Assembly: GCF_000764305.2 (NCBI RefSeq)
Contig: NW_025943670.1
Span: 4,139 to 68,138, forward strand
Direction: 5' to 3'
DNA length: 64,000 nt
Source of the DNA: Hyalella azteca
Taxonomy: Eukaryota; Arthropoda; Malacostraca; Amphipoda; Hyalellidae
The notes under the pieces were generated by a model that was not told where the DNA came from, did not search any database, and was given only the letters and a program-made list of their open reading frames with translations. Position numbers and translations under genes: made by a program. Numbering within the stretch: position 1 is the first letter of the stretch; every line of letters starts with the position of its first letter. Of this stretch, positions 9,793-64,000 are shown one piece after another.

Positions 9793-12700
9793 AATTTTCT
9801 TGTAACCTCATATTCAGAATTGCTAAAATGGCGTGTTGATTTTGGTTGAAGATTTAGCGTTGATATGTCTTACACCGCTGTTCTAAGCTCCTCACAGCAA
9901 GGGTACTCTGCTCTAAATTGGTAATGACTAAATCATTTTAGTTATTCCCAGCCGAATTATTGTCTTCTGTGGTACGTAGTTTTCAATGATTTATGTCTCG
10001 ATACTTGCCCTGCGAATGTATTTTTCAAGCAATTTAGGCAATTATTATCTAAGAACTAAAAATAGGCTTGTTTTTTAATTTTATTGCTTTTAAACCATTA
10101 AAATGGTCAGTGAGCTATTATTTCACCTTCGTGAACTAGAATGAAGCGTTAGAGTGACCTTGCGGATTGAGTAGAGCCGTGGATTTACCGACAAAGCCAA
10201 GCTTGCTTTTGAGTTTGTGCTATCAGTGTTTATGGGAGGTTGAGACGTGCATTGTTTGCTCAACCTAGAGCTCACTTCAACAAGTTCAAGGTTGTTTGAG
10301 ATTATGCGCGGTCCATTGGTTACATTCTACGCCATCGCTGTGCTCTTGAACGGAACAGATCTATGATTGTCGTTGATTCGCGTACCACTTACGCGATTAG
10401 TTGGAAAATTAAAGAGATTAACGGTAGATTGGTTCATTGATATAAGAATTTGCTTGCATTTGAGCTGATGGCTCATTTAATGCTTGTCAAAAACTTATTG
10501 AAATGGTCAGCGTTTCCTACGAAACATCTCGATCACACTCTTGAATCAGAATTTAACGTTTCTAAATATTACTATTAGTGGTAGGAAGTTGTTTTGAAGA
10601 GCCGGGTTCACCAAGTCGACAACCGGTTGCAGATTCATATAGGACGGTACCGCTCTTGACTGGGCGGCGCGAAGGAACCGCACACCCTTCAGCACAGCAC
10701 AAGACCTAACTTCTTGTACAATAAGGCCTGGCATATGCAGCATAAAGGCTCGCTTCTTTCAGTACGAGGCTTCACTCTCTCATCTTGCCTAGGCTGGCAA
10801 GATAAGTGCACTTAGCTCAGCACTAATGCACTCTGTATCTGCTGCTGTAGATCTCGTACACCGGTTCCCCGCGGTGCAGTTGCGTTGCATTGTGAGCTAG
10901 CATATCATAGCCTTGGCTTCTGCCACTAATGAAGTCTTGAGTCAGTGCAACAAATACCCATATCTTGTGTTCCAACTTGCTTGGGTAGTACGTAAAAAAT
11001 TCATCTTATTTTTGTTTTGTTCACATAAAGCCTTGGGAACATTTTGACCCGGTCCAACTTTAATGATGAAATGAAAACGCTCCAAATTTGACTACTCCCA
11101 TTTTTTGTTGGTATAACTCATTTTCTATTTGTTTCGCAGGAATATCTAACCCTTTTGATCTGAACAATTGCATTGTTCATATTTACGCCCTCTAAACGAT
11201 TGTTTGATTAGAGAAGGGTTATTTTAATTTCTCAGGAGTTTGCATTTAATTCGTGAAAACTTGTTTCGGGATTTGAAAATTTTGGGTTGCTTTTGACTTG
11301 TGCATTAGGATTTTGAAAATTTATTTCAACAGTCTGTGTTCAATCTTTAACTACATGTGTAGTTGGTGAGAAATCCAGCATTTGTGCTATGTTTGGCTTC
11401 AATTCAAGTGTAAAAGTATAGCACGGCCTTACTTATAGTGTACAACTCGCATCTCGAGATACCAAGTACGTTGTTAAAGTGGCATTATCATTTATTTCAA
11501 TGAGATATTGTACTCTACCAAAGAAAAAAGTGTTTTTATTCCATTATTTAAACATTCAGCTGGTCTTAAAAGTGGTGGTGCGTTTAAGTACGAACTAATA
11601 TCCTACCTTGCGTTGCGTTTAGTCGTGCACATGGTGCGTCAGGTAAGCATGGTAGGCAGCGTACACTCGCGCACCAGAACCACGAGTACCACAAGCACCA
11701 CCAGCAGTCTCAAGCGTCCTCCTGACAAGCGGAGGGCGCCGCCCTCTGTCACCACAAGGGGCGTCAGAAGACCGCACCTTCAGGATGCCCGTCAGGTCAC
11801 GCTTGCTTTCAGTGAGTCATCATTAGTAAATCAAATTATCCTAATTAACTGTCATAATCTAATAACCTCTGATGGATTTATATGGTGATGCCTATTGCAA
11901 ATAATGGAATTTGTTCCGTACATACTGTGTTTAACATCTATGCCAAACTACGTATTTTGTGTTAGTAAAAATGAAGTATATCGCTCGTTTGATCTTGTAT
12001 CACAGCATCCCACCTGGAAATTCAATGCTAATGCAGGAATTTAGTGTTTAATATTAAAATTACCAAACATTGTTTTGTTATTCTCAAGCACAAAACGAAA
12101 TCCACGCAGTAAGCGGTTCTAATACCAGGCAGATTTATCGTAAGAATCGGCTAGCGATAGTTCTGCTTCGATGATCAACCGGGGAAAGCATGCAGTCCAC
12201 CGCGTTTGTACGGTCTGCTTTCTTGGAATTTAATTGGGCTAGGTTTCGAATTTTGACGGTCTTGACGTGACGGCGGCGATCCGTCTTCGCGGAAGTCTTG
12301 TTGAGTTTTATTATTCAAGCACCATTAAATTCTGGACTCCTTTAAATTAAAACCCAGAATTCAGGAAAACCTTTAGTGTGCCCTCAAATATTTTGAAGGA
12401 TAAAGTTACCATGCTATATGGACACATTTGCTATACATACCTAACATAAGTAAAATATTGTATTGGCTTCTATGTAAGGCACTAATAACACTAACTGATA
12501 ATTGGACATACACATATGATTTAGTCTCTGCGATGTGTATTTGAGAATTATGTTCCATTTCAATAAAGGGAGGTAAAATTTGTTGAAAATTTTCACTCTC
12601 CAGTGACTTCAGTGAGAAGCGTATTTCCGTTTGATAAATTGTGCAAGTAATTCATGACTTTATTGTTGATCTATTGCTTGTAGCTTCTTCCCGCACATTC

Positions 12701-24339: not shown

Positions 24340-24748
24340 TACTGTGTTCGTTGCAATGTGTATCGGATCATGGGTGTAGTTCACTAGACGTTACGGCCGT
24401 TATACTTCAAATCGTTGCAACGTGTATCGGATCATGGGTGGGCCCGTGTAGTTCACTAGACGGTACCGCCGTTATACTTCAAATCGTTGCAACGTGTATC
24501 GGATCATGGGTGTAGTTCACTAGACGTTACGGCCGTTATACTTCAAATCGTTGCAACGTGTATCGGATCATGGGTGTAGTTCACTAGACGTTACGGCCGT
24601 TATGCTTCAAATCGTTGCAACGTGTATCGGATCATGGGTGTAGTTCACTATAGACGTTACGGCCGTTATACTTCAAATCGTTGCAACGCGTATCGGATCA
24701 TGGGTGTAGTTCACTTGACGTTACGGCCGGTATACTTCACAATTTGTA
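24340..24748 (+). repeat. 64-bp minisatellite, about 6 copies
   Basis: Units contain TTGCAACGTGTATCGGATCA, TGGGTGTAGTTCACTAGACG and TTACGGCCGTTATACTTC. One unit has an extra GGCCCG insertion near 24442. Confidence 0.95.
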
Positions 24749-24973
24749 TTATGCATTGCTGAGCGTACGTGGCTGTTTTTACATGTCTAAAAATAATTTG
24801 TCTTTAATGCGGAGTTTTTCTAAGTTCAGGTTTAAACGCTGAGTGGAAAGATAAAGCATACTTTAATGCCGTCCCTCGCCATGAAAAAGTTTAATTATCG
24901 TTGTAAAATAACCGCAAATTTTTATCTTACCTCAGACAAGTTCCCGTAAGATCGGTTTGTTCGCGCCAGTAGT

Positions 24974-25236
24974 TTGCAGTGACCTACCATGCATTAGTGC
25001 TAATATAGTTCCGGCAGTGACCTACCATGCATTAGTGCTAATATAGTTCTGGCAGTGACCTACCATGCATGAGTGCTAATGTAGTTCCGGCAGTGACCTA
25101 CCATGCATTAGTGCTAATATAGTTCCGGCAGTGACCTACCATGCATTAGTGCTAATATAGTTCTTGCAGTGACCTACCATGCACGAGTGCTAATATAGTT
25201 CCGGCTGTGACCTACCATGCATGAGTGCTAATGTAG
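24974..25236 (+). repeat. 38-bp minisatellite, 7 copies
   Basis: Units contain GCAGTGACCTACCATGCATT and AGTGCTAATATAGTTCCG, very uniform. Confidence 0.95.
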
Positions 25237-25382
25237 CGTCAGGGTATAGCGGTAAAGAGGTCACGTTGCCCTGCATGGTATTGAGCCGCCTGCCACTCGT
25301 GGTTAAGGAAGATCGAAGCAACAAGCTGGTCGCCACAGAGACTCGTCGCTGCACTACAGTTATTGCTCGACGCTGGGTATGA

Positions 25383-25808
25383 CCGGTGGTGCCATGTCAT
25401 ATACTTACTCTTACGGCTCTCCTGCTACCTGGACATTGCTTTTCACCGGTGGTGCCATGTCATATACTAACTCTTCCGGCTCTCCTGCTACCTGGACATA
25501 GCTTTCCATCGGTGGTGCCGTGTCATATACTTACTATACCGGCACTCCTGTTACCTGGACATTGCTTTCCATCGGTGGTGCCATGTCATATACTTACTAT
25601 ACCGGCTCTTCTGCTACCTGGACATAGCTTTCCATCGGTGGTGCCATGTCATATACTTACTCTTACCTGGACATAGCTTTCCATCGGTGGTGCCATGTCA
25701 TATACTTACTCTTACGGCTCTCCTGCTACCTGGACATAGCTTTCCATCGGTGGTGCCATGTCATATACTTACTCTTCCGGCACCCTTGCTACCTGAACAT
25801 TACTTTTC
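25383..25808 (+). repeat. 62-bp minisatellite, about 7 copies
   Basis: Units contain CGGTGGTGCCATGTCATATA, CTTACTCTTACGGCTCTCCT and GCTACCTGGACATAGCTTTC; one unit (near 25660) has lost the GGCTCTCCTGCT part. Confidence 0.95.
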
Positions 25809-51930: not shown

Positions 51931-52381
51931 GGTGGCTTCTAGCCAGGCCGGCAACACCAGATTGCCGCAATTGGTGGTCACTTTAGTGCGGACGGTCTCT
52001 GTTTAGGCTTTAGTTACCGTCATTAGTGGTGGACTGCATGCTGTTAGGCGACTCATCTCTGTCGATAACCGCACTCTCGTCTGCGTAATTTCTCGGCTCT
52101 TATTTGAACCACAGGAGGAAACATCGACGGCGGGATATTTGCTACCGAAATTCGGCCTCGAATTTGCATTGGGTTCTGCGATCACATCACCCATGCAATT
52201 CAGGCAGACGAGCTTCTGTTACATGATATGCACAACCTACTAAAATCAAATATCCCTGTCTTTTTTTAACTGCACTGAATTTATTTCGAAGGATGTGTGC
52301 TTCCAAGTTGTAAATGTTAATTTTATTTGCATTTTTGTCTTAGAAAAACTCTTTTAATTTCTATTGCATTTCGTGTTGCAG

Positions 52382-52512
52382 AAGAGTTCGTCGCGCACTC
52401 TGGCGCCGTGAACTGCCTTGCACTGGGACACAAGAGCGGGCGGGTCTTGGCCACGGGTGGCGATGACAAGAAGGTCAACTTGTGGGCGGTGGGCAAGCCC
52501 AACTGTATATTG
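52382..52512 (+). CDS. KATNB1: KATNB1 exon A: first WD40 blade
   Basis: The acceptor is TGTTGCAG at 52374-52381 and the donor is GTGAGT at 52513. The exon begins with AA, the last two bases of a codon whose first base (C, giving Gln) must come from an upstream exon; the protein then reads [16 protein letters not shown], matching the KLQE(F/I)VAH start of the p80 propeller. It encodes 43 full codons and ends in frame at KPNCIL. The LATGGDD and VNLWAV segments form the end of WD repeat 1. Initiation codon and upstream residues are missing, so the reading frame here is entered by splicing, not by a local ATG. Confidence 0.95.
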
Positions 52513-55500
52513 GTGAGTGTGCTTGTATTTTGTTGATATTAGTGTGCTGTGGGCCCTGCATAACCAATACACGCAACTGATGTGTGTGTGTATATGTAGT
52601 GTATGTTGTTTACCTATTACCTATTGGTTTATATTTTGATCTGTACTTCGCCGTGGGCAAGCAGAATTGACGATCATAACTCTTGATATATCTAAGACAT
52701 TATTATTCTTAAACTAAAAAAAACCTTACGGTTCCACAAACCAACCCCAACCTTACGGTGGGGTTGGAAAAAATAAGGGAAGCACCTGACACTTTGATAT
52801 CGTAATTTTTGAGCATGTTACAAACAATGAAAGCGTGTAACCTCTAAATGGCAAACCACTCTGACTTCAATGGTTCAAACACTGTTTCTGGAAAGGAACG
52901 TAATTTATCAATATGATAATGTCCCGATCTATTAAGCTGGATTTATTAAAAACTGGCTTGAGGAACAGTTGAGCATCTCATTTGGCCACCACAATCACCA
53001 GACCTGAATATTATCGAGCGTTTATGGTCAGTTTTAGAGATGCAAGTCCGAAGTCGAGTACTGCTGCCATCGTCTTCGAAATAGCTGGAGGGATTTTAAC
53101 TGAATAATGAGTTAAAATTCCTTTGGAAACCATTCACAATTTGTATGTAATACCTCGGAGATTTGAGGCTTTAATTGCCGGAAGAGGTGGACTACACCAC
53201 ACTAAAACATATTTTGTGGATTTCTCTGGGGTTTCCATTATTTTGTCTAACCTCTGTAATCCTGTACCTATATATCGGTGCCTGCATGGTGTTGTGTAGG
53301 TCTCGATCCTGTTATGGCCTGTACTTTCAAAAAAAGTTAAGAGATCGTAAGTTCATCAGCCAATCATTGACGACCTTTCGAGCAAAATCCACCAATCATA
53401 GACAAGAAAATAGAGCGTAAGTACTTACGTTCACTTAGCGAGTTTTGAAAGTATGGCCCCCGGATCTCGATAAGCGTCTTATATCTATTTTGCTACGAGC
53501 TTTTTCTGTGACATGATCTACCTTTTTCGTACCAATATTGCCAAGCGTTGTACGAGTTGAACATAATGGTCGTACCAAACAAAAGTTCGTGTTTTTTTTT
53601 AGTTATCTAGACCAACGATTTCTGGCAATCTGAATCAGGTGCAATTACAGTTAGGTATTAATACAAGTGTTATGTTAATTTTTTGTGAACATTACTTGCA
53701 ACGGTTACTGGCAAAGGCCGTTTGTAATGTCATGTGAGCTAATCATTGCTAATTGTCGCCTCTCTGCGGTTCGTTGTGGTCAAGTTCTGTTTAGTGTACC
53801 GCTGCGCGAATAATTACTGCCAGTTATTATTAATAATTAATTAATAATAACTGGCTCAGCAGTTCCTTGTCTTTTTTCGCAATAATCTCACTTACTTCCT
53901 CTTAATCAATTTAGTTCATTACTTACTACTGAAAATAGGAATTTCTAATTCATTTTCCGGAATTATTATTTTATTTAATTTTCAATGCATATACTATTTT
54001 TGAATAGCCTTCGAGTGTTCGAAGACAGCCTGTGCCTCAAATGTTATTTTTACTTTAAATTTAATATACTTAAATATAATTTAAACCCATTTACACCAAG
54101 AAAACTTGGAAATTTTAACTGTTTTTAAGTATTTGTGTGCCCCAAATAGCTCGACATGCTCGTATCGAGCATAGTACAAAAATGCTTCGTGTGAATTCTT
54201 GAACGCAAGGATCAGAGGTAAACATATTTTTAGGCGCAGCTTAATCCCCTTCTTATCTTGTAATGCCCTCTAGCACCTTAGGAGTGAGCAGGGCTTACCT
54301 TAGCCACATTTGAAGGGGGCTTTATCCTTCCCCTCTCACCGAGGAGCTAATAATAATAAGCTATTCAACAACCTACAGACATTTTTTCGTCTAAGAAGTT
54401 CTTGGCCTACGCTTCGCTTACTTTAAACACAACTCGTCTCACTTAATACGGTCCGTAAACTCCCTTTATTGTACAGAATTATGTACTTGAGCATGAATTG
54501 TACATTATTTTGTCCAGTGGTTCTGAACTACTATGATATAAACGTCTTGCGGACCGGAACAGACATCACATTTATGATTGGTAATGATGTTATACAGCAA
54601 GAAGATTGCGAAACATTCAAACGATTGCGTTCTTCGAAGTAACAATACTTGATCGTTTACATTCCGCGTGCGATATGACAATCAATTTTTTAGTTAGATT
54701 CATTTATTTTTTCGGTTATTTAGAATATTATGATATGTTTCGCAACTACAAGAAGACTCATTGCATTATACTAAGAATTACAACAGTCCAGATGTTGTAC
54801 GCTCTAGCTATTGCGCCACATTTCTTTCTACCGTTGCAAAAAAACTCCTTCGGTTGGGAAAGCCAAGCCAAACGCATAAAAACGTAAGATCTACCGCCGG
54901 AAATCGCGCTCTTAAATCTACCGCGCTAGAGCTAACTTACCTTCTTCAAAAACTGTAGTAGATTTCAGTGCCTCTAATGTTTGTGAACTACGCTAGGGGG
55001 ATGCGATTCTATCGGAAGACGAGTAGGTACTCGTTTATGGAAAAAATTCATAGCGTTGTATTGTAGTTTTATCTACTTTGAGCATTGTAGTTTTACCTAC
55101 TTTAAGTATTGTACTTTTATCTAATGTAAGTATTGTAGTTTAATCTACTTTTAATTAAGTTAGATGCAGGTGTCCTAATTGAGTGGTAATTTTGCGAATT
55201 TACGTTACCATTGGCTTTGATTTGCAAACAAGGGGCCATACTGTCAAAACTCGCTAAGTGAACGTAAGTACTTATACCCTTTATGTTCTTGTCCATGATT
55301 GGTGGATTTTGCTTGAAAGGCCGGCAATGATTGGCTGATGAATTTACGATCTCTTAACTTTTTTTGAAAGTATAGGCCCAGATTTAATTTGCGGAAAAGA
55401 AGCGTATACCGAATATAAAGTCACATCATTTCAGTGTAGGCTTATCACGAAATTCAATATTAATTTCGCGTGCATTGCAGTCGCTGTCGGGCCACACAAC

Positions 55501-58500
55501 AAGCATCGAGTGCGTGCGGTTCGGCGGGTCCGAGGAGCTGGTGTGCGCGGGGTCCCAGAGCGGGGCCCTCAAAATATGGGACCTGGAGGCCACCAAGATC
55601 GTGCGTACTCTCACTGGCCACAAGTCCGGTATCCGGTCCATCGACTTCCATCCTTACGGGGACTTTATTGGCACGGGGTCTCTTGACACAAATATTAAGG
55701 TGAGTGTGCTGATAAAATGTGTATCAAATGTATAAATTTGTGTGTACTTACAGTAAAATTACGATGAGTGAGCGGACACTGATATTATGCAAGATGAGTG
55801 TTCGAACACAAAAATTAATTTGATTAAACATAGAACTATTTTATTGGTAGTTTGTATTTAGGCATTTTTCACAGCTAACTGCATTTATCATTGTTAAAAA
55901 TGGTTTAATTCTAAAACCACTTGCTTCCATCGACTAAGTGTCGCGATACTAGGAAATCATTTCACCCTCGCCCGACCTACTCCTACAGCTATGAAACGCG
56001 ATACTAGAAATTTAACCTTTTCACCACCTGGTACTCCACATGGTTACGTGACAACAATAGTCGTTATGGATAAGAGTGATACTAGAGGAATAATATAACC
56101 TTCGCTCTCCCCCTGCTCCTAACAGTTATGGAGCGCGATACCTACTAGAAATTTAATCTTTTCACCACTTCTTCTACTTGGTTACGTGGCTTAGTTAAGA
56201 ATGATGCTATAGGAATAATATAACCTTCCTTCCCCCCGCTCCCCACAGTTATGGAGCGCCATACCTACTAGAAATTTAATCTTTTCACCACTTCTTCCAC
56301 TTGGTTACGTGGCTTGGTTAAGAGTGATACTAGGAATAATCTAACCTTCGCTCCCCCCGCTCCCAACAGTTATGGAGCGCAATACCTACTAGAAATGTAA
56401 TCTTTTCACCACCTGTTCTACTTAGCAACGTAAATACGTTTAAGAGTGATGCTAGGAATTATATAAATTTCGCTTCCCCCTGCTTCCCACAGTTATGGGA
56501 CATCAGAAGACGAGGCTGCATTTTCACCTACAAAGGGCACAGCGAGGCCGTCAACGGCATCAAGTTCAGCCCCGACGGCCAGTGGATCGCTTCTGCCGGG
56601 GAGGACTCGATCGTCAAGGTAACGTCATTAATAAATTAATGGTTGGTGATAGAACATGATTAATGAAGTGGGATGTAGGATGATTCAAGCTAGAAAACGT
56701 CAGCCTTCACACAGTCTCACTTATTCATCTAGTCATAGATGCGGCACTCATTCATTCAGCCTTACTTATGCATCTAAGTTTAACTTACGTAGGTATTCAT
56801 TTAAGCCCCACTTATCCTGTCGAGTTTAGACTTTTTTTTCTTTAAGTGGCTTTTAGCACGTTGCCATTACCCTGTTATTTAATTAGCTTGTATGCGTCAT
56901 TAGGCGTTTTTGAGGCGGGTGATTTCATTTTATTTCATTTTTTTGTCTTCAATAATTTTAACTTATAACCAAAGTATGTTCATTGCGCTTGGTTATCGCT
57001 GCTGTGCGTGCTAGAAAGATGCATACGTTGTTTATTATTTATTTCTATTTCATTAGTACCTTTTATATGTTTAGATTACGACCCCAATATTATTCAGAAT
57101 TATTATTCGTGAGTTAACGATTCATGTTGGTGTTGCCCTGCATTTGGACCTACTGGCTGGCAAGATATAAACGGCGTTCATGTTAGTCGCGCTTCGATTT
57201 CTAAATTTATTTTCGCGATAATTTTGACTTTAAATCCTTTTAATTTATTTACTGGCAGTGAAATAATGATTAATATTTCCAGCTATGGGATCTGCTGGAT
57301 GAAAAAATATAAACGGAGTTCATGTTAGTCGCACCTAAATTTATTTAGTTGTGCAATAATTTTGACTTTGAACCCCCTTAATTTATTTCCTGGCAGTGAA
57401 TTAACAATTAATATTTCCAGTTATGGGACCTGCGGGCTGGCAAGATGTAAACGGCGTTCATATTAGTCGCGCTTCAATTTCTATAGTTCTTCTATAATTT
57501 TGACTTTAAACCCCCCCTAATTTATTTCCTGAGTCGCACTCCAATTTTTATAGTTCCCCGTTAATTTAGATTTTAACCCCCTTAATTTATTTTTCGGCAG
57601 CGAATTAACGATTAATGCTTGCAGCTATGGGACCTGCTGGCTGGCAAGATATGAACGGCGTTCATGTTACTCGCGCTTCAATTTCTATAGTTCCTGTAAT
57701 TTTGACTTTAAACCCCCCTTAATTTATTTCCTGAGTCGCACTCCAATTTTTATAGTTCCCCTTCAATTTAGACTTTAACCTTTCTTAATTTATTTCATGG
57801 CAGTGAAATAATGAGTAATATTTGCAGCTATGGAACCTGCGGGCTGGCAAGATGTTAACAGCGTTCATGTTACTCGCGCTCCAATTTTTATAGTTCCTAT
57901 AATTTTGAGTTTAAGCCCCCTTAATTTTTTTCCTGGCAGTGAATTAACGATTTATATTTGCAGCTATGGGACCTGCGGGCGGGCAAGATGCTGACGGAGT
58001 TCATGGGTCACCAAGGCCCCGTGCAGGACGTAGAGTTTCATCCTCACGAGTTCCTGCTCGCCTCCGCCTCCCTCGACCGCACCGTCAACTTCTGGGACCT
58101 CGAGAAGTTCCAGCTCGTATCTTCGTCCCACCCCGACACTGGTCCCATTAGGTCTAGTATTTCATCCATTAAATATCACGTTGTTCCTTCCATGTCATGA
58201 TCGACAGTATGTGAAATTACTTGATTTTTTGTGAATTGTTTCTCTGGCCCGATAAGGTCTAGTATTTCATGAATTTAATATCACGTTATTCCTTAAACGT
58301 CAGGATCGACAGCATGTGAAATTACTTGATTTTTTTGTGAATTCTTTCACTGGTCCCATAAGGTCTAGTATTTCATCCTTTAAATATCACGTTATTGCTT
58401 CCACGTCAGGATCGACAGCATGTGAAATTACTTGATTTTTTGTGAATTGTTTCTCTGGCCCGATAAGGTCTAGTATTTCATGAATTTAATATCACGTTAT

Positions 58501-61500
58501 TCCTTAAACGTCATGATCGACAGCATGTGAAATTACTTGATTTTTTGTGAATTGTTTCACTGGTCCCATAAGGTCTAGTATTTCATCCTTTAAATAGGTA
58601 TCACATTATTCCTTCCACGTCATGATCGACGAAGAATTTACTTAAGCTCCGTGGATTATATATATTGAGACAAACACTTTATTGACCGGGATTTGACTAA
58701 CTCGCTGAGCTGTGTACTCCGACTCTTCTTCTTAAAACATCCATCCATGAGGAGGAATAAAATAGTTTACTTTATTTGGTATCTGCTTCAGCCTAATGAA
58801 TGAAATAGTTTAATTTATTTGGTATCTGCTTCAGCCTAATGAATGAAATAGTTTACTTTATTTGTTATCTGCTTCAGCCTAATGAATGAAATAGTTTACT
58901 TTACTTGGTATCTGCCTGAGCCTCATGTATGAAATATTTTATGATAAACACTTGATTAACCGAGACTCGACCACCCACAGGGCGGTGTGCTTCGACCCGT
59001 CAGGAGAGCACCTGTACGCGGGTTGCCCGGACGTGCTGCGACTGTACGGTTGGGAACCCGCTCGCACCATCGATACTCTGGCCATGGGCTGGGGCAAGGT
59101 GGCCGACCTCGCCGTGGCCAACACACAACTGGTGTGTTTTTCTATCAATCTAGCCGCTGTGCGACTGTGTTGGCTTCAATACTATTAGTCTAAATCTGGC
59201 GTCTAAATTAGTCTAAATCTGGCGTCTAAATTAGTCTAAATCTGGCTTCTAAATTAGTCTAAATCTGGCGTTTATTAGTCTTATTAGTCTAAATCTGGCG
59301 TTTATTAGTCTTAATAGTCTAAATCTGGCGTCTAAATTAGTCTAAATCTGGCGTCTATTAGTCTAAATCTGGCGTCTAAATAAGTCTAAATCTGGCGTCT
59401 AAATTAGTCTAAATCTGGCGTCTAAATTAGTCTAAATCTTGCGTCTAAATTAGTATAAATTTGGCGTTCTCATCCGGTGATCCCAGTTTGTGCTAGTGTA
59501 TCTTTCGCCATCCCATCTTTTCTCATTGTCTTTAATGTGTGGGTCCTTTTTTTGGCCAGATCGGCGCGAGCTACCAAGGCACCAACGTCTCCCTGTACGT
59601 CGTGGAGCTACGACGTCTACAACAGACACAGCTGCAGCGAGGCTCTGTTGCAGCTGCTGCAGCACCTGCGCTCGACAACACCATGATGATGATGCAGCAC
59701 CAGTACGGTACGTTGGCAGCATTAGGATAGTACCTATATATATTGGGATGATGCAGCACCACAGTACGTTGGCAGCATCTGTACAGTATATGTATTGGGA
59801 TGATGCAGCACCAGTGTGGTACGTTGGCAGCATCTGTACAGTATATATATTGGGATGATGCAGCACCACAGTACGTTGACAGCATCAGTACAGTATATAT
59901 ATTGGGATGATGTAGTACCACAGTACGTTGACAGCATCAGTACAGTGTATGTATTGAGATGATGCAGCACACAGTGCAGTACGTTGACAGCATCAGTACA
60001 GTATATATATTGGGATGATGCAGCACCGCAGTACGTTGACAGCATCAGTAGGTACAGTATATATATTGGGATAAAGCAGCACCACAGTATGTTGGCAGCA
60101 TCAGTAAAGTATACCTATGGGGCAGCGCACTGGAAGGATACTCATGAGATGCCATGTCTATTTTACACGGTTCGATAAATTTGTTTAGCCTGTAGCAATT
60201 GTCATCGATATATTATGTCATAATTATTAAGAAAAATCACTCGAGCAGGGCCTGGAGGAGTTGGCGGTAGCAACTTCCGTGCTGGAGCTGCCGTGCGCAA
60301 GAGCTTCAGTAAAGACAAGGACTACGCCAGGGCCAAGTGAGTCGCAAGCCCGTACGCCAAGGCCAAGTGAGTCCGGTGCCCGTACGCCAGGGCCGAGTGA
60401 GTCCCGTGCCCGTACACCAGGGCCAAGTGAGTTCCATGCCCATACGCCTGGGCCAAGTGAGTCCGGTGCCCGTACGCCAGGGCCAAGTGAGTTCCATGCC
60501 CGTACGCCTGGGCCAAGTGAGTCCCATGCCCGTACACCAGGGCCAAGTGAGTTCCATGCCCGTACGCCTGGGCCAAGTGAGTCCCATGCCCGTACGTCAG
60601 GGCCAAGTGAGTCTGGTGCCCGTACGCCAGGGCCAAGTGAGTTCCATGCCCGTACGCCTGGGCCAAGTGAGTCCCATGCCCGTACGCCTGGGCCAAGTGA
60701 GTCCCGTGCCCGTACGCCAGGGCCAAGTGAGTCCTGTGCCCGTACGCCAGGGCCAAGTGAGTTCCGTGCCCGTACGCCAGGGCCAAGTGAGTCCGGTGCC
60801 CGTACGCCAGGGCCAAGTGAGTCCCATGCCTGTACGCCAAGGCCAAGAGAGTCCGGTGCCAGTACGCCAGGGCCAAGTGAGTCCCGTGCCCGTATGCCAG
60901 GGCCAAGTGAGTCCCATGCCTGTACGCCAGGGCCAAGTGAGTCCCATGCCTGTACGCCAGGGCCAAGTGAGTCCGGTGCCTGTATGCCAGGGCCAAGTGA
61001 GTCCCGTGCCCGTACGCCTGGGCCAAGTGAGTCCCGTGCCCATACGCCTAGGCCAAGTGAGTCCCGTGCCCGTACGCCTGGGCCAAGTGAGTCCCGTGCC
61101 CGTACGCCAGGGCCAAGTGAGTCCCATGCCTGTACGCCAGGGCCAAGTGAGTCCCATGCCTGTACGCCAGGGCCAAGTGAGTCCGGTGCCCGTACGCCAG
61201 GGCCAAGTGAGTCCCGTGCCCGTACACCTGGGCCAAGTGAGTCCCATGCCCGTACGCCTGGGCCAAGTGAGTCCCGTGCCCGTATGCCTGGGCCAAGTGA
61301 GTCCTGTGCCCATACGCCTGGGCCAAGTGAGTCCCGTGCCCATACGCCTGGGCCAAGTGAGTCCCGTGCCCGTACGCCAGGGCCAAGTGAGTCCGGTGCC
61401 CGTACGCCAGGGCCAAGTGAGTCCGGTGCCCGTACGCCAGGGCCAAGTGAGTCCCGTGCCCGTACGCCTGGGCCAAGTGAGTCCCATGCCCGTATGCCTG

Positions 61501-63763
61501 AGTCAAAGGATTCACGCGCCCGATTTTTTATCCACTCATTGCTCGTCGTTTGGTCCACGCTCACTTTCATCCACGCTCACTTTCATCCACGGAGTAAGAT
61601 GTGGCCGTAAAGGATTTTAGGCTCTCAGGCTTCGTCGCATTGGAATTGCCTGTAAATTTATTCCATAAATAATTTCATTTTCAGTAGGTAGGTCTCTAAA
61701 CTTGATTTTATTTTGGTCTATGGAATCAAATGGCTCTACGAAACCTTTATCAATGGATCTAAGAATCTTTTCTCTTTCATTGTCATGTGTCATTATTAAG
61801 TGTCACTGTTTATGCGTCATTGTTATTTGTCTTTGTCGCGCGTCATTATGAAATGTCCCTCATGCGTCATTGTCGTGCGTCATTGTAAAGGTTTATCATT
61901 ATTGCAGCGCGGAGCAGATGAAGACAGAAGACGCGTCAGACACAGGGGGCGAAGAACCCCCTGAAGAGGACCCGCCTCCCAACATCCTGAACCTCAACGC
62001 CCACCGCGAGGTCTTCGGCGCACACAGAGAACGTGAGTCGCTTACACGATAGTAATACGTGTCGTATTACACGGTCACGGTGTTGTATTACACGGTCACG
62101 GTGTTGTATGACACGGTCACGGTGTTGTATGACGCGGTCACGGTGTTGTGGCAACAGCGACGTTACATCCTTATATCGACAATATGATGCGATGCCGTAA
62201 ATTACTTCTGCTTGGTCATTCACAAACATTAAAACCCTTGAATTTTTTAGGAATTTCAATGACTTAAAACTTATATTACTTGAAATATTCGCATAAATTG
62301 CTAGCAGCTTAGCCTTTTGATCGATCGTTTGATTGATTATGTTTTACAAAATCCAGTACATCATTTTTCGTTTATTTGACAAACTGACACACATCACAGT
62401 TTATGAACATAGAAAATGATGTAAACAAAAAGTAAAATTTCCACCGGAAAATTTTTCATCATTGGATAAAAGCAATGAGCAGTTGTAGCCATTAACTTTC
62501 CTATTGCTGGTGCCGCTTCTTAAGAGTTAAGATGTACTTGCATCCTATTAAATTCCTTACATTTAAGTCGTTATCTTTGTTACTAATTAACTGCGTGCTT
62601 AGATATCGTTGATCTTTTCAGTTTGTTGCTTGATTGCGTTTGTTTGCTCACGTTTTTCTCTGAGATTTGTGCTGACATTCTTGGGCATCAGTCTTGTCAC
62701 GCGCTTATTTTAGACGTGTTTTGCAGTGCAAAGAACGCCACCTCCTGAACCTCCTTCGTGGTCTAACAACAACGGTGAGTGACTTCATCTGGTCACTTAT
62801 ACTCATTTGTTACTCATATTCAATTACCACTCATTATGTCAGTTTCTTCATTTTCATTTCAATCATCTGTCAATGTCTCCCTTGTGACTTCTATTAATCT
62901 TTCACTCTTGCAGATCATATCGGTCGTTTAAATTTCATTTCTGAGCTCTAATTTCAATATTTCGTTCTATTTTTTTCCATGTGATCGTTCTTTTTCCAGT
63001 CCATCATTATTTTCCCCAGCGTAATTTTTCTATTTATTCTCTGGTGTTTCATTCATTTTGGCTCGTTCTTGCTGTCTGTATCTCATCACTCTTATTATTG
63101 ATCAATATTTATCTTGATATTCTCATACATTGTAAACTATTTGCTCATTAGATTTACTTACATGTGGTCATGGTTGTAACGGTGAGTGTTTTCTCGTGTG
63201 CGATGTTACTGCGTGTTAAACAACATTTGGTTTTTAACCCTGCTTGCTTTTACACGTTTTCAACTTGAACTTGAGTTGCTTACATTATGATATTTCGAGT
63301 TCAGGTCAAATATTTCAGCCGCTGTGCGTGATCTGATATTTGTGTGCAACATATCTGCTTTTATTTCAACGGACGAGAAATGCCGATCCTTCGTATTGTC
63401 TGGAGTTAATATCCGTCTACGTACTTGTATTAAGTCTTATTTTTTCATTTATTTTCAAATTCCTTAAGTTGATACTACCTTTACTATTAGAACAATTCCT
63501 CCTGGATAGTCTTCTTTGAAGTTTTCGTGTTGTGTTTCATGTTGACAAGTTTTTTTAATGATAGAAAATTTTTATTATCCGGGAACGGTATAATAATTAT
63601 TGTGTCCCACAGAGCCAGTGTCGGTGTCAGGGGAGGTGGTGGGTGGCAGCGCTACTCTACCACGGCGCGCCTCCACCTCCACTCCCTCCACCATGCCTGC
63701 TGCCCTCCACCACAGACCCTTCACCGCACCCAGAGAGTCCCTCCACGCCTCACCCATCACCAG
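52382..63763 (+). CDS. KATNB1: Katanin p80 WD40 subunit B1 gene, partial (10 internal exons)
   Basis: Katanin p80 is the non-catalytic subunit of the microtubule-severing enzyme; it targets the p60 AAA ATPase to centrosomes and spindle poles and modulates severing. Ten exons join without a phase break (lengths 131, 219, 126, 188, 151, 148, 88, 125, 48, 151 nt), every intron is GT-AG, and the product is about 458 residues. Recognition rests on family-specific stretches remembered from vertebrate p80: [87 protein letters not shown]. The N-terminal exon, which must supply the first base of a split Gln codon, was not found in the window, and the C-terminal con80 domain that binds p60 lies beyond it. 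Introns total most of the span and are full of tandem repeats seeded at splice junctions. Confidence 0.95.
52870..53225 (+). pseudogene. Tc1-like transposase remnant in KATNB1 intron 1
   Basis: Conceptual translation gives YQYDNVPIY, a stop, then [14 protein letters not shown]; after a one-base frame change at about 52981 it reads [15 protein letters not shown] and [10 protein letters not shown]; further on [25 protein letters not shown]. These match the C-terminal half of Tc1/mariner-family transposases, which cut and paste at TA; the QDN aspartate region and the SPDLNPIE(H/R)LW block with the last acidic catalytic residue are both visible. The N-terminal DNA-binding half and terminal repeats were not found. 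Frameshift, stop and 5' truncation show it is inactive. Confidence 0.82.
53314..53461 (-). mobile_element. MITE family A, copy 2 (KATNB1 intron 1)
   Basis: Reverse-oriented full-length copy: GGCCTGTACTTTCAAAAAAA at the left end and AGTTTTGAAAGTATGGCCCC at the right. It lies about 90 bp downstream of the Tc1-like remnant. Confidence 0.88.
53820..53854. repeat. 15-bp-arm palindrome in KATNB1 intron 1
   Basis: CCAGTTATTATTAAT and ATTAATAATAACTGG with a 5-nt AT spacer. Confidence 0.93.
55062..55150 (+). repeat. 34-bp tandem repeat, 3 copies
   Basis: Units contain GTATTGTAGTTTTATCTACT in KATNB1 intron 1. Confidence 0.85.
55231..55380 (+). mobile_element. MITE family A, copy 3 (KATNB1 intron 1)
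   Basis: Ends GGGGCCATACTGTCAAAACT and GAAAGTATAGGCCCA; the interior matches copy 1 throughout. It ends about 100 bp before the exon B acceptor. Confidence 0.88.
55481..55699 (+). CDS. KATNB1: KATNB1 exon B: WD40 repeats 2 and 3
   Basis: The acceptor is GCATTGCAG ending at 55480 and the donor GTGAGT starts at 55700; 73 codons, phase 0 at both ends. It starts [14 protein letters not shown] and carries two blades: [16 protein letters not shown] closes repeat 2, and [18 protein letters not shown] opens repeat 3, which ends TGSLDTNIK at the exon edge, waiting for LWD from the next exon. GH and WD dipeptides sit at the expected WD40 positions. GC content and codon use contrast sharply with the AT-rich intron around it. 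Confidence 0.96.
55965..56492 (+). repeat. Tandem array of decoy 3' splice sites before exon C
   Basis: Units of about 121-123 bp (the most upstream one about 137 bp away) each carry a pyrimidine-rich stretch, CAG and TTATGG. CAG positions are near 55986 (as CAGCTATG), 56123, 56246 and 56367; the authentic acceptor is 56490-56492. After TTATGG the decoys read GAGCG(C) and ATACCTACTAGAAA, whereas the real exon reads GACATCAGAAGA. Each unit also repeats AATCTTTTCACCAC and GGTTACGT. Confidence 0.9.
56493..56618 (+). CDS. KATNB1: KATNB1 exon C: end of WD3, WD4
   Basis: The acceptor TTCCCACAG ends at 56492, the donor GTAACG starts at 56619; 42 codons, phase 0/0. It starts [20 protein letters not shown] and ends [12 protein letters not shown], so it closes blade 3 and supplies most of blade 4. 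The first bases of this exon together with its acceptor (CAGTTATGG) have been copied several times into the upstream intron; only this copy continues as a WD40 frame, which identifies the true acceptor. Confidence 0.95.
57130..57963 (+). repeat. Tandem array of pseudo-exon starts before exon D
   Basis: Copies of acceptor plus exon D start (CAG CTATGGGACCTG, GGCTGGCAAGATG, GGCGTTCATG) end their CAG near 57282, 57420, 57624 and 57827, with an acceptor-less remnant at about 57138 and the authentic one at 57963. Spacing is about 137 or 204 bp; the longer units contain an additional GAGTCGCACTCCAATT segment. In the WD40 frame the decoys meet TAA, TGA or TAG, so none can replace the real exon. Confidence 0.92.
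57964..58151 (+). CDS. KATNB1: KATNB1 exon D: WD5 and start of WD6
   Basis: The acceptor TATTTGCAG ends at 57963; the donor is AG|GTCTAG at 58152. It has 62 codons plus two bases (phase 0 in, 2 out). It starts [16 protein letters not shown], then [17 protein letters not shown] and [15 protein letters not shown], ending GPI plus the AG of an Arg codon completed by exon E. Both edges are unusual: decoy copies of the acceptor plus about 25 exon bases lie upstream, and decoy copies of the donor lie downstream. All upstream decoys hit a stop within a few to about 20 codons, so the authentic exon is unambiguous. Confidence 0.95.
58135..58632 (+). repeat. Tandem array of decoy 5' splice sites after exon D
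   Basis: A unit of about 105 bp starts with the end of exon D (ACTGGTCCCATTAG) and its donor GTCTAGTATTTCAT. Copies of AAG|GTCTAG follow near 58256, 58362, 58467 and 58572, each followed by TATCACGTTATTCCTT, GATCGACAGCATGTG and TTACTTGATTTTTT. Two unit versions alternate (TGGTCCCATAAG and TGGCCCGATAAG), suggesting a higher-order two-unit duplication. Confidence 0.92.
58778..58940 (+). repeat. 43-bp tandem repeat just upstream of exon E
   Basis: About four units of 43 bp share TATCTGCTTCAGCCTAATGA and GAAATAGTTTACTTTATT. The array ends 40 bp before the exon E acceptor and does not include the junction itself. Confidence 0.9.
58981..59131 (+). CDS. KATNB1: KATNB1 exon E: WD6 and end of propeller
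   Basis: The acceptor ACCCACAG ends at 58980 and the donor is CTG|GTGTGT at 59132. The first base completes the Arg codon from exon D; 50 codons follow: [44 protein letters not shown]. The YGWEP and GKVADLA stretches are strongly p80-specific. A tempting in-frame ATG at 58925 lies inside the intron and is part of a 43-bp repeat, so it is not a start. Confidence 0.94.
59188..59468 (+). repeat. 23-bp tandem repeat after exon E
   Basis: About eleven units of TAGTCTAAATCTGGCGTCTA with small length changes begin some 55 bp after the donor of exon E and fill most of the intron to exon F. Confidence 0.92.
59560..59707 (+). CDS. KATNB1: KATNB1 exon F: propeller exit and linker
   Basis: The acceptor TTTGGCCAG ends at 59559. 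The exon encodes [17 protein letters not shown], matching the NVS-YVVDL end of the p80 WD40 domain, then an Arg/Gln-rich and poly-Ala linker and a four-Met run ending QHQY plus one base. The chosen donor is TACG|GTACGT at 59708; it leaves phase 1, which fits exon G. An alternative GT two codons earlier (CA|GTACGG) is weaker. The last exon bases and this donor are the first unit of a roughly 52-bp minisatellite that fills the intron. Confidence 0.88.
59690..60118 (+). repeat. 52-bp minisatellite seeded by exon F 3' end
   Basis: Units share GATGATGCAGCACCACAGTA, CGTTGACAGCATCAGTACAG and a TATATATTGG tract; about eight copies. The first unit is the last coding bases of exon F (ATGATGCAGCACCAGTACG) plus its donor GTACGT. 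Later units keep GTACGT in the same position, so each is a candidate 5' splice site. Confidence 0.92.
60249..60336 (+). CDS. KATNB1: KATNB1 exon G: short linker exon
   Basis: The acceptor CTCGAGCAG ends at 60248. GG completes the Gly codon left by exon F; the frame reads [17 protein letters not shown], then [11 protein letters not shown], and two bases AA run into the donor GTGAGT at 60337. Phase 2 out matches exon H, giving Asn. No homology is claimed for this linker; support comes from splice signals, phase on both sides, and coding-like composition. Reading through the donor in this frame gives AAG then TGA at once, so this junction must be spliced. The donor starts a 39-unit array. Confidence 0.82.
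60322..61502 (+). repeat. 30-bp minisatellite (about 39 units) seeded by exon G donor
   Basis: The unit contains CGTACGCCAGGGCCAAGTGA followed by GTCCCGTGCC. The first unit is the end of exon G (TACGCCAGGGCCAA) and its donor GTGAGT. By my count 39 units are present and 38 keep GTGAGT; the one near 60847 reads GAGAGT. Variant positions (CC/TC, CGT/CAT, CAG/CTG) are shuffled among units, as in a minisatellite under turnover. Because 30 is a multiple of three, long reading frames stay open on both strands (427-449 codons); these are repeat artefacts, not genes. Confidence 0.95.
61908..62032 (+). CDS. KATNB1: KATNB1 exon H: acidic/proline linker
   Basis: The acceptor TATTGCAG ends at 61907 and the donor GTGAGT starts at 62033. 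The first base completes an Asn codon; then [14 protein letters not shown], an acidic [10 protein letters not shown] stretch and [17 protein letters not shown]. In phase 1, out phase 1. The linker between propeller and con80 is poorly conserved and acidic/Ser-Pro-rich in the family, which this fits. The context, phase and splice sites support it more than sequence similarity. Confidence 0.88.
62066..62152 (+). repeat. 21-bp tandem repeat after exon H
   Basis: Four to five units of CACGGTCACGGTGTTGTAT lie within 120 bp of the exon H donor; the donor itself is not part of the unit. Confidence 0.88.
62727..62774 (+). CDS. KATNB1: KATNB1 exon I: 48-nt linker microexon
   Basis: The acceptor GTTTTGCAG ends at 62726; the donor is AACG|GTGAGT at 62775. 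With the C from exon H it reads [16 protein letters not shown] and leaves one base. Vertebrate p80 has a similar basic-proline stretch (RTPPRRSEP) at this place, as I recall. Length is a multiple of three, so skipping it would keep frame; it could be an alternative cassette, though nothing here proves that. Confidence 0.82.
63613..63763 (+). CDS. KATNB1: KATNB1 exon J: Ser/Pro-rich linker
   Basis: The acceptor TGTCCCACAG ends at 63612; the donor is CCAG|GTTACA at 63764. With the G from exon I it reads [19 protein letters not shown], then a Ser/Thr/Pro-rich tail ending HASPIT plus AG. The phase agrees with exon I. The last 40-odd exon bases plus the donor are duplicated about 128 bp downstream, still nearly identical, so a second donor in the same relation to coding sequence exists at about 63892. 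The gene continues past the window end. Confidence 0.87.
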
Positions 63764-63960
63764 GTTACACTTTGGCCTTCATTATATAATATTTTTTTCT
63801 GTAATTACCAACATTCTTTTTATTATATCAGTATCATTTATTCATGTTTCACTGCACCCAGAGAGTCCCTCCACGCCTCACCCATCATCAGGTTACACTT
63901 TGGCCTTCATTATATATTATATTTTTGTAATTAACATCCTTTTAATCATATCGGTTATTT
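63718..63960 (+). repeat. 128-bp tandem duplication spanning exon J donor
   Basis: Two copies of GCACCCAGAGAGTCCCTCCA through CACCCATCACCAG, then GTTACACTTTGGCCTTCATT and an AT-rich tail. The first copy is exonic up to 63763; the second, from about 63849, is intronic unless its donor at about 63892 is used. Confidence 0.93.
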
Positions 63961-64000
63961 ATGTAATTATTTACACGCATTTGCCATCATCTCAGCATTT

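What the first reader, a model, noticed from the sequence alone, without database searches (positions are those of the whole stretch)
55965..63960. Splice junctions of one gene repeatedly amplified into its own introns
In KATNB1, at least six exon edges are the seed of a tandem array that contains the splice site itself: acceptors of exons C and D, donors of exons D, F, G and J. Exon E (both sides) and exon H have arrays within about 120 bp. Independent unit lengths (121-123, 137/204, 105, 52, 30, 128 bp) show separate events, yet the same position, the exon-intron border, is hit each time. That is hard to explain by random minisatellite birth. It suggests a local process tied to junctions (for example replication or transcription-linked slippage, or selection retaining duplications that leave a functional site at the exon edge) that lengthens introns while surrounding each exon with decoy sites. 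I know of no named system describing this.
Basis: partly seen in the sequence, partly recalled or inferred. Interest (0 to 1): 0.88.

Follow-up and report, generated by a model that had tools for sequence, protein, structure and literature searches.

The report
Splice junctions inside intron minisatellites
In one gene of an amphipod crustacean, six repeat arrays plus one older duplication contain an exon edge with its splice site; they probably arose when ordinary DNA duplications overlapped the ends of short introns, and splicing is predicted to ignore all but the copy nearest the exon.

Summary
The gene is KATNB1 (katanin p80); its spliced exons match a Hyalella azteca protein at 457 of 458 residues, which supports the exon map independently. 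Six tandem arrays with different units (121-123, 136-138/203-204, 105, 52, 30 and 128 bp) carry a splice junction in the unit: acceptors of exons C and D, donors of D, F, G and J. A seventh, older duplication spans the acceptor of exon E. That is 7 of 21 junctions tested. The annotated protein is built from the exon-proximal copy each time.

With introns collapsed to their pre-array length, 3.0 of 12 arrays should straddle a junction by chance against 6 seen (P 0.041); other nulls give P 0.0001 to 0.056. A modest excess remains, in one gene picked after the fact; the genome-wide test could not be run. Likely mechanism: ordinary tandem duplication in short introns, tolerated because exon definition picks the exon-proximal copy. 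Human ABCA7 has a 25-bp array that begins with an exon's donor, so the kind is known; seven junctions in one gene is unusual. The exon G intron, with 38 GTGAGT donors, is a natural splicing experiment.

The parts
11631..11811 (+). First coding exon of KATNB1; intron 1 is 11812-52381 (40,570 bp)
   Evidence: tblastn of P0135; donor GTGAGT
52382..52512 (+). Exon A (no junction array)
55481..55699 (+). Exon B (no junction array)
55945..56498 (+). Array of 121-123 bp units containing the acceptor of exon C and its first 6 nt; decoy acceptors before 56126, 56249 and 56370
56493..56618 (+). Exon C
57109..58005 (+). Array of 136-138 and 203-204 bp spacing containing the acceptor of exon D and its first 42 nt; decoy acceptors before 57283, 57421, 57625, 57828 and a decayed first copy
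57964..58151 (+). Exon D (both edges in arrays)
58137..58630 (+). Array of 105 bp units containing the donor of exon D (last 15 nt); 4 decoy donors
58652..58723 (+). Older copy (71%) of the acceptor of exon E, 58925-58996; its AG is changed to TG
58755..58941 (+). 43 bp array lying between the two E-acceptor copies; does not reach the junction
58981..59131 (+). Exon E
59182..59468 (+). 23/30 bp array 50 nt after exon E; does not reach the junction
59560..59707 (+). Exon F
59688..60122 (+). Array of 52-56 bp units containing the donor of exon F (last 20 nt); 7 decoy donors in register
60249..60336 (+). Exon G
60323..61522 (+). Array of 39 units of 30 bp that starts with the last 14 nt of exon G; 38 of the units hold GTGAGT, the first of them the real donor
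61908..62032 (+). Exon H
62059..62149 (+). 21 bp array 26 nt after exon H; does not reach the junction
62727..62774 (+). Exon I (no junction array)
63613..63763 (+). Exon J
63720..63955 (+). Two copies, 128 bp apart, containing the donor of exon J and its last 44 nt

Best explanation
Six minisatellite arrays and one older duplication in this Hyalella azteca KATNB1 gene carry a splice junction in the repeated unit; they likely arose as ordinary tandem duplications of about 30-140 bp that overlapped exon edges because the introns were short, and likely persisted because splicing is predicted to keep using the copy nearest the exon. Shown: the arrays, their unrelated units, the copying of exon-edge sequence into introns, and that the annotated protein is built from the exon-proximal copy at each of the seven junctions. 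Inferred: each began as one duplication (slippage or break repair) that by its length alone often included an edge; more copies were added inside the intron by unequal exchange or slippage; coding sequence could not be expanded, so each array ends within 44 nt of the edge; decoy sites stay silent because splice sites flanked by introns above about 250 nt are recognised by exon definition, which pairs the sites closest across the exon. Introns lengthen as a by-product, with no function demonstrated.
For: Arrays with units of 16-147 bp occur all over the window (38 segments upstream of exon A; unit lengths for 33 of them), so junction arrays are not a special class. Among the 12 arrays, 5 of 6 with units of 40 bp or more straddle a junction, 1 of 6 with shorter units, as geometry predicts. 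The collapsed-intron null expects 3.04 of 12 (P 0.041). The protein P0135 matches the proximal-copy splicing at 457 of 458 residues. Introns B-C to I-J are 428-1571 bp, exons A-J are 0.61 GC against 0.31-0.45 in intron DNA outside arrays, the architecture of exon definition. With two identical donors and 365-nt flanking introns, five of five human minigenes used the upstream donor exclusively (PMC9225289, Results section). At C, D, E and J the exon side of the repeat is residues shared with other crustaceans (alignment), so the copies went from exon to intron.
Against: The excess of straddling arrays is still 2-4 fold and P is 0.0001 to 0.056 depending on the null. Five introns in a row (B-C to F-G) plus G-H are 61-82% array while intron 1 is 12%, A-B 3%, H-I 13% and I-J 0%, which plain geometry does not explain; arrays in 55700-64000 are more numerous (11 against 6.0 expected, P 0.044) and longer (P 0.010) than upstream. 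The donors of D and J are weak by recalled position frequencies and the D copies score slightly above the real site; in PMC9225289 the stronger of two donors won in 86% of events, unfiltered events favoured the downstream donor in about 60%, and very weak identical donors led to skipping of large exons. For acceptors that paper shows only a reduced upstream preference under exon definition. The rule is from human cells. Intact decoys are slightly more frequent than random dinucleotides of the same units (P 0.025).
Confidence: 0.6

Rival explanations
1. Exon-intron borders are preferred birth sites: a local process (for example polymerase pausing, R-loops or break repair at the step from GC-rich exon to AT-rich intron) duplicates DNA across the edge.
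For: 6 of 12 arrays (7 of 13 with the older E duplication) straddle a junction against 0.9 to 4.2 expected under the nulls; upstream unit lengths give P 0.0027. Exons are 0.61 GC and neighbouring intron DNA 0.31-0.45.
Against: The collapsed-intron null brings P to 0.031-0.062; 14 of 21 junctions have no spanning copy; coverage does not peak at junctions (a weak test); the gene was chosen because it was striking.
Confidence: 0.22
2. The decoy sites are kept by selection, for example as extra U1 binding sites that protect long introns from premature polyadenylation, or as alternative splice sites.
For: Splice dinucleotides are intact in 56 of 57 copies counted, P 0.025 against random dinucleotides; GTGAGT is intact in 38 of 39 G units; PMC4889658 (passages) argues for such a role of cryptic donors in long Drosophila introns; the C acceptor copy at 56370 would add 123 nt in frame without a stop.
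Against: The two oldest copies have lost their AG, giving 56 of 59; copies in an array are not independent; most change in the G array is at CpG columns, which the donor core lacks; most decoys would add a stop codon; PMC4889658 also reports that GGTAAG is counter-selected in Drosophila introns.
Confidence: 0.08
3. The arrays are assembly artefacts.
For: No long reads were available to check copy number.
Against: Copies near the junctions are 77-97% identical to the real site on average per array with distinct substitutions; false joins would give near-identical copies.
Confidence: 0.03

Closest known systems
Human ABCA7 intron-18 VNTR (PMC5954066; passages read)
   Same: A 25-bp tandem array immediately after an exon whose first GT is that exon's splice donor, so each unit carries a donor copy; it makes up much of the intron; the proximal copy is canonical.
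   Different: One junction in one gene, copy number known to vary (12 to about 427 units) and a one-unit retention isoform seen. Here six arrays in one gene, acceptors as well as donors, several with exon sequence in the unit; variation and RNA not tested.
Potato RdRp intron gain by tandem duplication (PMC4974935; abstract read)
   Same: A tandem duplication that crosses an intron-exon border and copies its splicing signals.
   Different: It made a new intron; here the annotated protein shows no extra intron or exon piece at the arrays.
Novel Drosophila intron positions by tandem duplication (PMC2891723; passages read)
   Same: Local tandem duplication producing duplicated splice motifs; the paper cites many population duplications that include some exonic sequence.
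   Different: Duplications lie inside coding exons and make new introns; here existing introns grow.

Membership tests
Junction-spanning intronic VNTR (ABCA7 kind) | Tandem array next to an exon whose repeat unit includes that exon's splice site | tested here: met
   C and D acceptors, D, F, G and J donors; J has two copies only
Junction-spanning intronic VNTR (ABCA7 kind) | Exon-proximal copy is the canonical site | tested here: met
   Annotated protein P0135, 457 of 458 residues; other isoforms and RNA reads not seen
Junction-spanning intronic VNTR (ABCA7 kind) | Copy number varies between individuals | not testable with these tools
   One assembly only
Junction-spanning intronic VNTR (ABCA7 kind) | Array changes splicing of neighbouring exons | not testable with these tools
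   No RNA reads
Intron gain by tandem duplication | A new intron inside the duplicated stretch | tested here: not met
   Spliced exons A-J equal the annotated protein without extra pieces; unannotated isoforms cannot be excluded

The most novel reading that the evidence does not exclude
Exon-intron borders are preferred birthplaces of minisatellites in this genome, and exon definition makes the result self-reinforcing: once an intron passes about 250 nt, copies of its own splice sites become invisible to splicing, so junction-seeded arrays pile up and lengthen introns gene by gene.
Probability: 0.13. Interest if true: 0.8.

Novelty: new member of a known kind. Interest (0 to 1): 0.42.

Why it matters
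If general, it is a simple route by which introns lengthen without transposons, with a reason why it would be tolerated in exon-defined genes and not in intron-defined ones. In any case the exon G intron, with 38 GTGAGT donors 30 bp apart of which the annotated protein uses the first, is a natural test of how splicing chooses among identical sites.

Tried and rejected
Junction hotspot read from coverage: no peak at junctions, but the test is weak and is not used as proof. Conserved donor core in the G array: the random-subset P was 0.0098, but the core ties with three other of the 30 nine-base stretches and 43 of 71 changes sit in six CpG columns, so it is not taken as selection. Array number first gave 12 against 6.0 (P 0.021); this counted the two J copies apart, and with 11 it is P 0.044. 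Shared sequence between arrays: none found. Other genes in the window as an internal control: 10 longer open frames upstream gave no Pfam family above its cut-off, one weak match below it (DUF5545, E 0.0037); most of that stretch proved to be intron 1 of KATNB1. Rfam and tRNA scans: 0. Solved structures: the 60 of 761 matches shown are WD40-type proteins. Comparison of introns between species was not possible: only proteins of relatives were found. Donor scores use position frequencies that I recalled; they come from no call. Exon A was taken to start at 52381 and at 52382 from then on. Paper searches brought up ABCA7 and intron-gain papers in the rows listed, and none there by title or abstract start reports several junction arrays in one gene; the library holds open-licence papers only.
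Full report
WHAT THE GENE IS. Their 458-residue translation matches P0135, the NCBI katanin p80 B1 isoform X2 of the amphipod Hyalella azteca (taxonomy), at 99.78% over 458 positions. Among the 209 proteins held the next best by score is 66% identical over 466 columns. The one mismatch is the first residue, whose codon is split by the preceding intron. P0135 also places the first coding exon at 11631-11811, so 11812-52381 is intron 1. This independent annotation uses, at every junction discussed here, the splice site nearest the exon body. Only this isoform was seen.

WHAT IS REPEATED. TRF and blastn of 20 junctions show arrays whose unit contains the acceptor of C, the acceptor of D, and the donors of D, F, G and J. 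They reach 6, 42, 15, 20, 14 and 44 nt into the exon. Every match lay beside its own exon, so these are separate events. Gapped alignment of all 21 junctions against up to 900 bp of flanking DNA adds a seventh, the acceptor of E: an older copy at 58652-58723, 71% identical, with a 43-bp array between the two copies. So 7 of 21 junctions have a spanning copy and 14 do not. At C, D, E and J the exon side of the repeat encodes residues shared with other crustaceans, so the copies went from exon to intron.

DECOY SITES. The splice dinucleotide is intact in 3 of 3 (C), 4 of 4 (D acceptor), 4 of 4 (D donor), 7 of 7 (F), 37 of 38 (G) and 1 of 1 (J) intronic copies, 56 of 57 in all. Two old copies left out of that count, the first D acceptor copy and the E acceptor copy, read TG in place of AG, which makes it 56 of 59. 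Against random dinucleotides of the same units the 57 give P 0.025, but copies in an array are not independent. In the G array 38 of 39 units, the real site included, hold GTGAGT, and 43 of 71 changes fall in six CpG columns. Use of the decoys examined would add a stop codon in all but two cases: the C acceptor copy at 56370 (+123 nt, in frame, open) and the J donor copy at 63891 (+128 nt, open, frame shifted). For G the first three decoys were printed; the longer extensions contain the same stop. The donors of D (GTCTAG) and J (GTTACA) are weak by recalled frequencies, and the D copies score a little above the real site.

IS THE BORDER A TARGET? The window is rich in minisatellites: 38 array segments upstream of exon A, unit lengths 16-147 bp for the 33 with a TRF unit. 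How often should an array include a junction? With present intron lengths 1.46 of 12 is expected and 6 seen (P 0.0007; 0.0001 if overlap into the exon is capped at 50 nt). But the introns are long because of the arrays. Collapsing each array to one unit gives 158-585 bp for introns B-C to G-H, and then 3.04 of 12 is expected (P 0.041; 0.031-0.056 for other lengths of the cut-off J intron); with the cap 2.31 (P 0.011). With the older E duplication included the collapsed null gives 4.0 of 13 against 7 (P 0.046) and the present-length null 1.6 (P 0.0001) (all). Unit lengths of upstream arrays give 1.71 of 11 (P 0.0027); the observed units re-dealt among introns give 2.45 of 11 (P 0.019). None is corrected for the gene having been picked because it was striking. 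So short introns and long units explain about a third to a half of the pattern, and a modest excess is left that one gene cannot settle. Coverage is lower next to junctions (0.35 at 1-20 nt) than at 51-200 nt (0.56-0.61); that fits arrays bounded by coding sequence but cannot exclude seeding at the edge followed by growth inward.

WHAT REMAINS ODD. Introns B-C to G-H are 61-82% array, intron 1 12%, A-B 3%, H-I 13% and I-J 0%. Arrays in 55700-64000 are more numerous (11 against 6.0 expected, P 0.044) and longer (median 287 against 94, P 0.010) than upstream. In Daphnia pulex, repeats with units above 8 bp are reported as much rarer in introns than in other regions (PMC3152781, passages), so this gene differs from that crustacean genome.

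HOW IT LIKELY WORKS. A duplication of about 30-140 bp arises by slippage or break repair (inferred). If it overlaps an edge, the gene holds two copies of a splice site. With flanking introns above about 250 nt, splice sites are recognised by exon definition, and sites closest across the exon are favoured; five of five human minigenes with two identical donors used the upstream one exclusively (PMC9225289, Results and passages). The same paper reports that the stronger donor wins in 86% of events, that unfiltered events favour the downstream donor in about 60%, and that acceptors show only a reduced upstream preference. Introns B-C to I-J are 428-1571 bp and exons are GC-rich (0.61 against 0.31-0.45 outside arrays), which fits exon definition. 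The duplication is then predicted to be silent and the array can grow on the intron side. The collapsed E-F and F-G introns (164 and 158 bp) would have been below the threshold, so arrays may themselves have moved these introns into the permissive state; this is inference.

WHAT IS KNOWN. Human ABCA7 intron 18 has a 25-bp VNTR whose first GT is the exon 18 donor, with about 12 to 427 units and a minor isoform that keeps one unit (PMC5954066, passages). A potato gene gained an intron by a tandem duplication across an intron-exon border (PMC4974935, abstract). So a junction inside a minisatellite is a known kind of thing; several in one gene, at acceptors as well as donors, I did not see in the rows of the searches listed.

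VERDICT. Observation confirmed and extended by one junction; a junction-tied process is neither shown nor excluded; most likely ordinary tandem duplication in short introns, with splicing that tolerates it. The genome-wide test that would decide could not be run: the tool could not be reached in 14 attempts.

Noticed in passing
52962-53081: Fragment of a DDE_3 transposase (Pfam PF13358, 31.7 bits against a cut-off of 28.6) in intron A-B; Tc1/mariner-like by recall.
   Followed up: partly
53316-53460 and 55232-55378: Two inverted copies (104 nt at 91% and 43 nt at 98% complementarity) about 1.8 kb apart in intron A-B, possibly a small non-autonomous transposon.
   Followed up: partly
24348-25808: Three arrays close together inside the 40.6-kb intron 1, far from any known exon: array clusters also occur away from junctions.
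   Followed up: no
59628-59707: The end of exon F encodes about 25 residues (poly-Ala, MMMM) that most of the 7 aligned relatives lack; it abuts the F donor array, so the donor may once have shifted outward.
   Followed up: no
60231-61617: Two frames stay open for 459 and 435 codons through the G array because the unit is 30 bp; neither is the frame of exon G, which meets a stop at once when the first decoy is used.
   Followed up: partly
60323-61492: 43 of 71 changes from the G-array consensus lie in six CpG columns, as if CpG decayed here, though CpG observed/expected is 0.83-1.08 in the exons, the introns at 55700-64000 and intron 1.
   Followed up: partly
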